NCBI GenBank assembly: GCA_943326015.2
Contig: CALPRQ020000032.1
Coordinates: forward strand, 1-40,720
Origin: Chitinophaga pinensis
GTDB taxonomy: Bacteria; Pseudomonadota; Gammaproteobacteria; Burkholderiales; Burkholderiaceae_C
Direction of reading: 5' to 3'
DNA length: 40,720 nt
Numbering within the stretch: position 1 is the first letter of the stretch; each line of letters starts with the position of its first letter. Shown here piece after piece: positions 48 to 1,412 of the stretch. Under the pieces are notes generated by a model. The model ran no database searches and was not told the DNA's origin. It worked only from the letters and a program-made list of their open reading frames with translations. Both the position numbers and the translations under genes were made by a program.

Positions 48-1412
48 GCGCTCGTCGCCGAGCCGGGCGGGGTGCCGGGCGCCTCATGGTGCGAGCACAA
101 ATCGTCGCCCGGCACCCCGCCCGACTCGACGACTCGGGAGGCGCCGAATGGTGGCGTCATGGCTGCTGCTGCAGCGGATTTCGGTATTCATGTCGCCAGC
201 ACAGCGTCACAGGGCCGCGAGGGGGCGGCGGCTGACGATTTGTGCTCGCACCATGAGGAAGCCGCCGTCCCCTCGCGGCCCGCTGCCAAGAAATCCTCGC
301 GCAAGAAGAAGCAACCGGAGCCAGAAGCAACGCCGCTGCCGGAAAAGCTGCACTGGCTCACCGTCGAGCGTGCCAACCTGCACAACCTCAAGGGCGTGAC
401 GGCCGCGATTCCGCTCAAGCGCCTGGTCGCGGTCACGGGCGTCAGCGGCTCGGGCAAGTCGACCTTCGCGCGCGAGGTGCTGCTGGCCAACGTCGCCGCC
501 GCCGTGACCCAGAGCTCGACCAAGGCCGGGCGCGACGCGCTCGCTGCCGGCCAGCTGCCGGTCTGGCAGGGCTGCGCCGGCCTGCACGGCCACGGCCATG
601 TCGAGCGCGTGCTCGAGGTCGACCAGACCCCGATCGGCAAGACGCCGCGATCCTGTCCCGCGACCTACATCGGCTTCTGGGACGCGATCCGCAAGCTCTA
701 CGCCGAGACGCTGGAGGCCAAGGCGCGCGGCTACGCGCCGGGCCGCTTTTCCTTCAACACCGGCGAGGGGCGCTGCCACAGCTGCGAAGGGCAGGGCGTG
801 CGCACCATCGCGATGAGCTTCCTGCCCGACGTCAAGGTGCCCTGCGAGGCCTGCCACGGCGCCCGCTTCAACCCCGAGACGCTGGCGGTGAGCTGGCGGG
901 GAAAAAGCATCGGCGAGGTGCTGCAGATGGAGGTCGACGAGGCGGTCGGTTTCTTTGCCTCCATGCCCGCGATCGCCCAGCCGCTGCAGCTGCTGCAGGA
1001 CGTCGGCCTGGGCTACCTGACGCTGGGCCAGCCCTCGCCGACGCTGTCGGGTGGCGAGGCTCAGCGCATCAAGCTGGTGACGGAGCTGTCCAAGGTGCGC
1101 GACGAGCTGGGTCGGCGCGGCCAGAAGGCACCGCACACCCTCTACGTGCTCGACGAGCCGACCGTGGGCCTGCACATGGCCGATGTCGACAAGCTGATCC
1201 GCGTGCTGCACCGCCTGGTCGACGGCGGCCACAGCGTGGTCGTGATCGAGCATGACCTGGATCTGATCGCAGAGGCCGACTGGGTGCTCGACCTCGGCCC
1301 CGAAGGCGGCGATGGCGGTGGCCGGGTCGTCGCGGCCGCGCCGCCCGAGGCGCTGGTGCGGCTGGGCACCCACACCGGTCGCGCGCTGGCGCCGGTGCTG
1401 GCCCGGGGCTGA
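1..1412 (+). CDS. uvrA: UvrA-family excinuclease ABC subunit A, C-terminal part (5'-truncated by window edge)
   Basis: DNA-damage recognition ATPase of nucleotide excision repair, acting with UvrB. The frame is open from base 3 at the left edge, so the gene begins outside the window; the GTG at 72 is not a convincing start. Visible in order: an Ala-Gln low-complexity stretch, a 90-residue linker with two palindromic DNA elements, a Lys-rich patch, Walker A GVSGSGKST (about 438-464), the TPRS-PATY box, a zinc finger with two CxxC pairs (CHSC near 775, CEAC near 843), the ABC signature LSGGEAQR (about 1048) and Walker B YVLDEPT followed by GLH (about 1144). The C-terminus keeps the ADWVLDLGPEGG motif. 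The TPRSCPATY wording and the long linker before Walker A resemble the extra-long UvrA form of some Burkholderiales; that is inference, since the N-terminal part is not visible. It converges with the next gene with no gap. Confidence 0.93.
   Translation, partial: AAAAAAQAQAQAQAQALVAEPGGVPGASWCEHKSSPGTPPDSTTREAPNGGVMAAAAADFGIHVASTASQGREGAAADDLCSHHEEAAVPSRPAAKKSSRKKKQPEPEATPLPEKLHWLTVERANLHNLKGVTAAIPLKRLVAVTGVSGSGKSTFAREVLLANVAAAVTQSSTKAGRDALAAGQLPVWQGCAGLHGHGHVERVLEVDQTPIGKTPRSCPATYIGFWDAIRKLYAETLEAKARGYAPGRFSFNTGEGRCHSCEGQGVRTIAMSFLPDVKVPCEACHGARFNPETLAVSWRGKSIGEVLQMEVDEAVGFFASMPAIAQPLQLLQDVGLGYLTLGQPSPTLSGGEAQRIKLVTELSKVRDELGRRGQKAPHTLYVLDEPTVGLHMADVDKLIRVLHRLVDGGHSVVVIEHDLDLIAEADWVLDLGPEGGDGGGRVVAAAPPEALVRLGTHTGRALAPVLARG
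59..128 (+). repeat. Palindromic element copy 1 with conserved loop, in frame within uvrA
   Basis: Left arm 59-80 and right arm 107-128 are 22-nt inverted repeats with one mismatch; pairing extends to about 54-133 with one more mismatch. The 26-nt loop (81-106) contains a 25-nt core (82-106, including TGGTGCGAGCACAAATCG) that recurs exactly, in reverse orientation, at 234-258. The arms of the two copies are unrelated to each other. Translated in the uvrA frame the core reads SWCEHKSS. Structure is seen directly; mobility is inference. Confidence 0.85.
212..281 (-). repeat. Palindromic element copy 2 with conserved loop, in frame within uvrA
   Basis: Left arm 212-232 and right arm 261-281 are 21-nt inverted repeats with one mismatch, enclosing a 28-nt loop (233-260). 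Positions 234-258 are the exact reverse complement of the 25-nt core of the copy at 59-128. The arm sequence (GGGCCGCGAGGGG type) differs from that of the first copy. The uvrA frame reads through it as DDLCSHHEE, so the core is open in both orientations. Confidence 0.85.

What the first reader, a model, noticed from the sequence alone, without database searches (positions are those of the whole stretch)
59..281. Two elements with an identical loop and unrelated self-complementary arms inside uvrA
A 25-nt core (82-106) recurs exactly in reverse orientation at 234-258. In each copy it is flanked by inverted arms of 21-22 nt with a single mismatch, yet the arms of the two copies are unrelated. 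Ordinary dispersed repeats share whole sequence; here only the loop is shared while each stem pairs with itself. This suggests an element that inserts a fixed loop and copies the flanking target as an inverted repeat, or a folded single-stranded element under selection for pairing. Both copies are 70 nt arm to arm and both keep the uvrA frame, reminiscent of Rickettsia palindromic elements, which also sit inside genes. I know no described family with this loop.
Basis: partly seen in the sequence, partly recalled or inferred. Interest (0 to 1): 0.85.

Follow-up and report, generated by a model that had tools for sequence, protein, structure and literature searches.

The report
REP-like DNA hairpin pair in uvrA
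The two odd palindromes belong to a scattered family of short DNA hairpins in Comamonadaceae bacteria that keep one small inner motif while their long stems drift in matched pairs, and that often sit, in frame, inside repair genes such as uvrA; they resemble the known REP repeats, and the evidence speaks against their copying the DNA they land in.

Summary
In detail: an exact 25-nt core at 82-106 and, inverted, at 234-258, each inside its own 22-bp stem. It is one pair of a dispersed family: 15 model hits in the window genome (genus Malikia, by its named congeners) and hits in 45 of 299 sampled genomes of its GTDB family. Conserved across genera are the two strands of an internal loop (CCTCAT / AAATCG) and a stem of 22-24 bp; stem and apical hairpin vary by compensatory change. 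Adjacent elements found are convergent in 90 of 91 pairs. In genome G083 a ~238-nt pair recurs at 33 places with shared arms, so arms travel with the element. Stem mismatches are A.C 277 to G.T 29 on the core strand, whatever the host gene's direction: the constrained fold is on the complement strand, and host mRNA is not the selected molecule. Best read as a REP/REPIN-like single-strand DNA hairpin without GTAG foot or terminal CGTC tag. It lies in uvrA, dnaE2, leuS and helicase genes, gene types already reported for intragenic REPs. Enzyme and function are inferred. Identity with the described Betaproteobacterial BRE could not be tested.

The parts
59..128 (+). Element 1, in core orientation: left arm 59-80, core 82-106, right arm 107-128. 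The strand inferred to fold is the complement (-).
   Evidence: R1 hit 88.3 bits
82..106 (+). 25-nt core of element 1: CCTCAT / apical GGTGCGAGCAC / AAATCGTC
129..211 (.). Spacer between the convergent pair; varies among congeners
212..281 (-). Element 2, inverted: arms 212-233 and 260-281. The strand inferred to fold is +.
   Evidence: R1 hit 90.7 bits
234..258 (-). 25-nt core of element 2
3..1412 (+). 3' part of a double-length (four ATP-binding sites) uvrA; the rest ends contig C16. The pair lies between the third signature motif and the fourth Walker A motif (site S3).

Best explanation
The pair is a convergent REPIN-like dimer of a REP-like palindromic element of Comamonadaceae. Shown by sequence: (1) each element is one hairpin with a 22-24-bp outer stem, a conserved internal loop and a variable apical hairpin; (2) stems and apical hairpins change by compensation while the loop stays; (3) elements occur singly or as convergent pairs, between genes and in frame inside genes; (4) mismatches show that the strand reading GACGATTT...ATGAGGA is the one whose folding is constrained, independently of host-gene direction. 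Inferred: that strand folds as single-stranded DNA (for instance at replication), a trans-acting protein reads the internal loop (on that strand two tandem G.A/A.G steps round a C-G pair), and such a protein, perhaps a Y1/HUH enzyme of the RAYT kind, dispersed the pairs. In uvrA the elements are long-standing insertions tolerated in loops.
For: Covariation: 34 copies, core strand 93.3% paired, 22 of 25 pairs with double changes, shuffles 65.7%; same copies, complement 98.1%. Mismatch polarity: 261 of 264 distinct elements in fixed register, positions 3-19: WC 3952, A.C 277, G.T 29, other 175. Same direction in 5 of 5 groups, though weak in g103 (3:1) and Malikia (17:5). Sense 94:15, antisense 75:8, no gene assigned 107:8 (host strand by an ORF heuristic). 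The search model was built on the core strand and counts G.U as a pair, so it works against this bias. Stability: complement lower in 250 of 260 (RNA) and 234 of 260 (DNA parameters). Pairs: 90 convergent, 1 same direction, 0 divergent. Dispersal as a unit in G083: 39 hits at E 0.01; 11 pairs printed, 8 of them exactly 154 nt apart; 33 places of the unit; arms shared. UvrA loops.
Against: No enzyme is tied to the elements: the Y1 protein is in 282 of 299 family genomes, is missing from 2 of the 45 with elements (G119, G182), and has no element beside it. No mobility event was caught: G083 has no other sampled congener and no clean ancestral empty site was found; the element-free S3 site of G002 looks like a deletion. 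The finder demands parts of the core and at least 15 of 20 arm pairs, so core invariance and high pairing in its set are partly built in. Two adjacent same-direction copies in M. granosa and one same-direction pair (G004) do not fit the dimer rule. A transcript from the element's own strand is not excluded. Copy numbers are low (1-39 per genome).
Confidence: 0.62

Rival explanations
1. Target-copying element: a fixed loop is inserted and the flank is copied as the second arm.
For: Arms differ between loci of one Malikia genome while cores are identical or nearly so; the G002 S3 junction is the two outer arms joined, without cores.
Against: G083 copies share arms at different loci; stem length nearly fixed; arms above shuffle similarity in 7 of 7 genomes; arms at one site keep changing by compensation between species (95 double WC against 88 one-sided). 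The other four genomes of the genus have elements at S3, and a GG shared by both ends explains the G002 junction as a deletion.
Confidence: 0.05
2. RNA-level element: the hairpin acts in transcripts (processing, termination or a small RNA), and pairing is selected in RNA.
For: Strong wobble tolerance on one strand; BRE was found at a small-RNA locus in Bordetella (PMC3110155, section 14). That tandem G.A loops are common in RNA is recalled.
Against: The bias is the same for elements sense and antisense to their gene; a convergent pair carries one element in each direction; no Rfam match reached its gathering score (mostly miRNA-type chance hits).
Confidence: 0.17
3. No selection on folding: hairpin-templated repair (quasipalindrome correction) keeps the arms alike.
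For: Neighbouring compensated changes at an orthologous site, e.g. S2b between G000 and G002 (sequences).
Against: Repair should also erase the internal-loop mismatches, yet C4.T4 is kept in 40 of the 42 model hits printed (the model itself rewards this), and repair gives no reason for A.C over G.T tied to core orientation. It may act together with selection.
Confidence: 0.1
4. The family is the described Betaproteobacterial repeat element (BRE), so already named. (Not exclusive of the readings above.)
For: Overlapping hosts (Comamonadaceae), similar length (75-91 bp), high GC, sometimes intragenic and tandem; Malikia granosa has a tandem copy.
Against: No element beside lexA, where Bordetella carries BREs, in 30 loci from 34 element-bearing genomes asked; but none of these is known to be Bordetella. 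No BRE sequence could be read.
Confidence: 0.35

Closest known systems
REP / REPIN (GTAG-tagged, RAYT-associated)
   Same: Dispersed hairpins, single or as opposed pairs, heterodimers with different stems, intragenic copies in uvrA, dnaE2, tRNA synthetase and RNA helicase genes (PMC3733652 sections 14 and 15); conserved mismatches in the E. coli REP stem (PMC8266576 section 14).
   Different: No conserved foot motif, stem 22-24 bp, no element beside the Y1 gene, low copy number.
CGTC-tagged REPs
   Same: AAATCGTC in most copies, opposed dimers, no dedicated transposase known (PMC3733652 passages).
   Different: Here CGTC lies inside the internal loop and is CGGC or CGGT in part of the copies, not an unpaired end tag; CGTC REPs have 8-9-bp stems (PMC3733652, passage).
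BRE, Betaproteobacterial repeat element
   Same: Hosts, size, GC, some intragenic and tandem copies (PMC3110155, section 14).
   Different: Sequence not readable here, so identity is open.
Rickettsia palindromic elements
   Same: Palindromic insertions inside ORFs (PMC3733652 section 15).
   Different: No sequence comparison made.

Membership tests
GTAG REP / REPIN | GTAG or GTGG tetranucleotide 5' of the hairpin foot | tested here: not met
   No conserved foot motif over 255 elements. GTAG-containing palindromes were seen only in the spacer of the G083 unit.
GTAG REP / REPIN | RAYT gene flanked by the repeats | tested here: not met
   0 hits in 12 loci round Y1 genes, 8 of them the RAYT-like gene.
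GTAG REP / REPIN | Opposed dimers dispersed in the genome | tested here: met
   90 of 91 adjacent pairs convergent; G083 unit.
GTAG REP / REPIN | Folded single-stranded DNA processed by a cognate TnpA | not testable with these tools
   Needs biochemistry; strand polarity is compatible.
CGTC REP | Unpaired terminal CGTC, 8-9-bp stem, 4-5-nt loop | tested here: not met
   CGTC/CGGC inside the loop, 22-24-bp stem.
BRE | Over 70% identity to Bordetella BRE | not testable with these tools
   Sequences are in a supplement that could not be read; text read.
Rickettsia palindromic element | Sequence homology to RPE families | not tested
   No Rickettsia sequence was asked for.
Rfam RNA family | Score above a gathering threshold | tested here: not met
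   Searches (window 1-1500; 10 loci): nothing above gathering scores.

The most novel reading that the evidence does not exclude
The elements are the unknown substrate of the near-universal single-copy RAYT-like Y1 protein of Comamonadaceae (about 237 aa, of a kind for which no repeat substrate is reported), and their lasting presence in uvrA and dnaE2 is selected: strand-specific folding in repair and mutagenesis genes makes these genes sensitive to stalled replication.
Probability: 0.07. Interest if true: 0.8.

Novelty: new variant of a known kind. Interest (0 to 1): 0.5.

Why it matters
It gives a clean case in which mismatch polarity alone tells which strand of a palindrome is read, and separates element-level from host-mRNA-level selection. 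It also repeats, in an apparently separate repeat family, the unexplained habit of REPs to settle in uvrA, dnaE2, tRNA synthetase and RNA helicase genes, so that the habit can be tested across three repeat families.

Tried and rejected
Target-copied arms: rejected on G083 and the near-fixed stem length. Host-mRNA structure: rejected. Y1_Tnp as an associated gene: present in 18 of 18 element genomes asked, but a homologue is in 282 of 299 family genomes, so uninformative; no elements beside it. Phage or plasmid carriage: 0 matches for two core patterns in viral contigs, none in plasmids for two queries. Known RNA family: none. BRE identity: sequences not readable; lexA neighbourhood empty in 30 loci. 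Empty sites of G083: the genus search held G083 alone. Core motifs in print: one paper on HaloTag tagging holds one of six strings (listing only). Paper searches: searches gave nothing; two gave the REP papers, 51 and 60 the BRE paper; no listing named this core or structure. One search measured loops with misplaced gaps and was replaced; one search used a register off by one and was replaced; one search lost copies to de-duplication and was replaced; alignment A1 had three rows on the wrong strand and was replaced by A2. Alignments A3, A4 and A5 contain some wrong-strand matches and were not used for counts.

Full report
Observation. The 25-nt core at 82-106 and its exact reverse complement at 234-258 are real; one search found 24 nt of it at these two places only, mean 0.00 in 100 shuffles. 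Each sits in its own 22-bp stem with one mismatch; both elements are 70 nt and stay in frame in a uvrA.

A dispersed family. With up to two mismatches the core occurs 10 times in the window genome (G000), 4-6 times in each of four congeners, once in another genus (G006) and not in the other 34 of 40 genomes; the reversed pattern gave none. A covariance model (R1) built on 34 copies found hits in 5 of 5 genus genomes at E 0.01 (8-17 each; the 15 of G000 include a contig-end chimera), in 45 of 299 family genomes at E 0.01 from 30 of 141 genera, G000 and three congeners included, and at E 1e-5 in 4 of 399 of an order sample, G000 included, one outside the family (G360). Model R2 found 2 of 369 in a class sample at E 1e-5, G000 and another member of the family. 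A fixed-core scan of named genomes gave 63 stretches, with titles such as Malikia, Rhodoferax, Polaromonas, Macromonas, Comamonas, Hydrogenophaga and uncultured Burkholderiales. In 131 kb of loci not chosen for elements the finder found 0.

Anatomy. Across genera the internal-loop strands CCTCAT and AAATCG(T/G)C and the stem length persist. The finder requires parts of these motifs, so invariance in its set is partly built in; of 42 model hits printed, 40 keep the C4.T4 mismatch. The apical hairpin takes 58 forms in 225 distinct elements; in Malikia GTG-CGAG-CAC of G000 and G002 is CTG-CGAG-CAG in most copies of G001, G003 and G004. Outer pairing is 0.74-0.95 at 24 positions and then falls to 0.46, 0.35 and 0.19-0.38 (255 elements; at least 15 of the first 20 pairs were demanded by the finder, the drop was not).

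Arms. In Malikia arms look different between loci, but mean identity exceeds shuffled arms in each genome (G000 0.499 against 0.407; G001 0.473/0.396; G002 0.517/0.390; G003 0.507/0.403; G004 0.516/0.411), more so in G099 (0.438/0.325) and G083 (0.612/0.254). In G083 a ~238-nt unit of two convergent elements is found at 33 places, the query's two included and three at contig ends, at 71-93% identity (only 40 of 564 first-look candidates were scored); its two arm types recur at different loci. Conservation reaches a few bases beyond the arms (TGTACG, partial output). So arms are part of the dispersed unit and then drift by compensation. Between genomes of the Malikia genus at ten orthologous sites, 95 pairwise position comparisons were changed on both sides with pairing kept, 88 on one side, 13 on both without, 791 unchanged.

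Which strand folds. On the core strand stem mismatches are A.C far more than G.T (277 to 29; 261 elements, 3 left out), in each group of genomes (157:18, 58:3, 42:2, 17:5, 3:1). On the complement these are G.T wobbles, and pairing of the 34 copies rises from 93.3% to 98.1%. As the core is what orients the palindrome, the complement 5'-GACGATTT...ATGAGGA-3' should be the constrained strand. The bias is alike for elements sense (94:15) and antisense (75:8) to their gene and with no gene assigned (107:8), so host mRNA is not the selected molecule. On that strand the internal loop reads G.A, A.G, C-G, G.A, A.G, T.T, T-A (derived; the likeness to tandem sheared G.A motifs is recalled). The outer G.A steps are replaced by other pairs in part of the copies. 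That an unpaired state in the stem matters to a REP enzyme is reported for E. coli (PMC8266576, section 14).

Pairs. Of 91 adjacent pairs within 320 nt, 90 are convergent, 1 same direction, 0 divergent; median core spacing 154 nt. Directly adjacent same-direction copies in M. granosa and G004 are weak copies outside this count. Pairs with different stems match the heterodimers described for REPs (PMC3733652, section 14).

Host genes. Of the 63 named stretches, 31 (several from one genome) carry the element in uvrA. Elements in uvrA, of these and of other genera, map to three loops (reference residues 536-590, 1169-1207, 1815-1866), sense member first; one (L126:3990) could not be placed. The mapping is partly guided by the element peptides themselves. 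In 18 uvrA loci without a finder hit in the fetched stretch the S1 loop has 8-47 extra residues (one, L299, matches a loose sense-peptide pattern); in 7 loci with one element 33-76; in 16 with a pair 84-145; G002, with a chimera, 53. Three of the 18 genomes (G083, G099, G106) carry elements elsewhere. Other in-frame hosts (nine proteins scanned, L022 had no family): error-prone DNA polymerase DnaE2 (three), leucyl-tRNA synthetase, formate dehydrogenase alpha (two), HrpA; several are fragments below the curated cut-off. In DbpA the element lies before the matched domain and may be upstream of the true start. PMC3733652 (section 15) lists uvrA, dnaE2, tRNA synthetases and RNA helicases for GTAG and CGTC REPs.

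Instability. G002 lacks the window pair; its junction joins the outer arms of both elements at a GG shared by both ends, most simply a deletion. At S1 it has one chimeric element, an outer arm of each partner round one core. The end of contig C16 of the window genome also joins arm 1, core and the inner arm of element 2, as an inversion of the spacer would; it may be an assembly artefact.

Enzyme. A Y1 protein (NCBIfam NF047646, 79.8 and 80.6 bits against a cut-off of 80) has homologues in 282 of 299 family genomes. A survey reports no REP-like repeat beside subclass 2.1 (PMC6006769, section 20); assigning this protein to 2.1 is my inference from length and motifs. A link is possible but not shown.

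Known or new. Papers seen: PMC3733652 (abstract, passages, sections 14 and 15), PMC3110155 (passages, section 14), PMC8266576 (abstract, section 14), PMC6006769 (passages, section 20), PMC5217627 (passages). Seven paper searches listed nothing that names this core or structure, but BRE may be the same family. I therefore rate it a new variant of a known kind, REP-like, with BRE identity open.

Noticed in passing
L021:1532-7009 with window:3-1412; L283-L300: Comamonadaceae genomes searched carry a double-length UvrA (open frames mostly 1,890-2,190 aa, four ATP-binding sites in Malikia); most also show a second, ordinary-length UvrA of about 1,000 aa.
   Followed up: partly
window:18-50; L030 from about 7963: CAGGCT (Ala-Gln) repeats beside element 1, and a GGAGCA repeat run in the M. 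spinosa S1 spacer that continues the sequence of the arm: microsatellites may arise from arm ends.
   Followed up: no
L021:6920-6988 (end of contig C16) and window:59-281: C16 ends with a chimera of the two window elements, as if the spacer were inverted; population inversion or assembly artefact.
   Followed up: no
L251:1125-1380: The G083 pair encloses palindromes with GTAG (such as GGTAGCGCGCTACC) in its spacer, possibly a second, GTAG-type repeat nested in the unit.
   Followed up: no
L017:1477-1614 (M. granosa) and L033:1776-1910 (G004): Directly adjacent same-direction copies, a tandem arrangement like that described for BRE.
   Followed up: no
L155:2741-3801 against L023:4313-4340: About 1 kb present in Malikia sp. 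STC_66 directly beside an orthologous element and absent in the window genome.
   Followed up: no
L177, L179, L181, L183 (G360): Four copies outside the family with nearly identical perfect stems and a related core (CATG...AAATCGTC); not found by the finder.
   Followed up: partly
window:3205-6961 (-): Genes resembling minor type IV pilins (by eye only) lie near uvrA.
   Followed up: no
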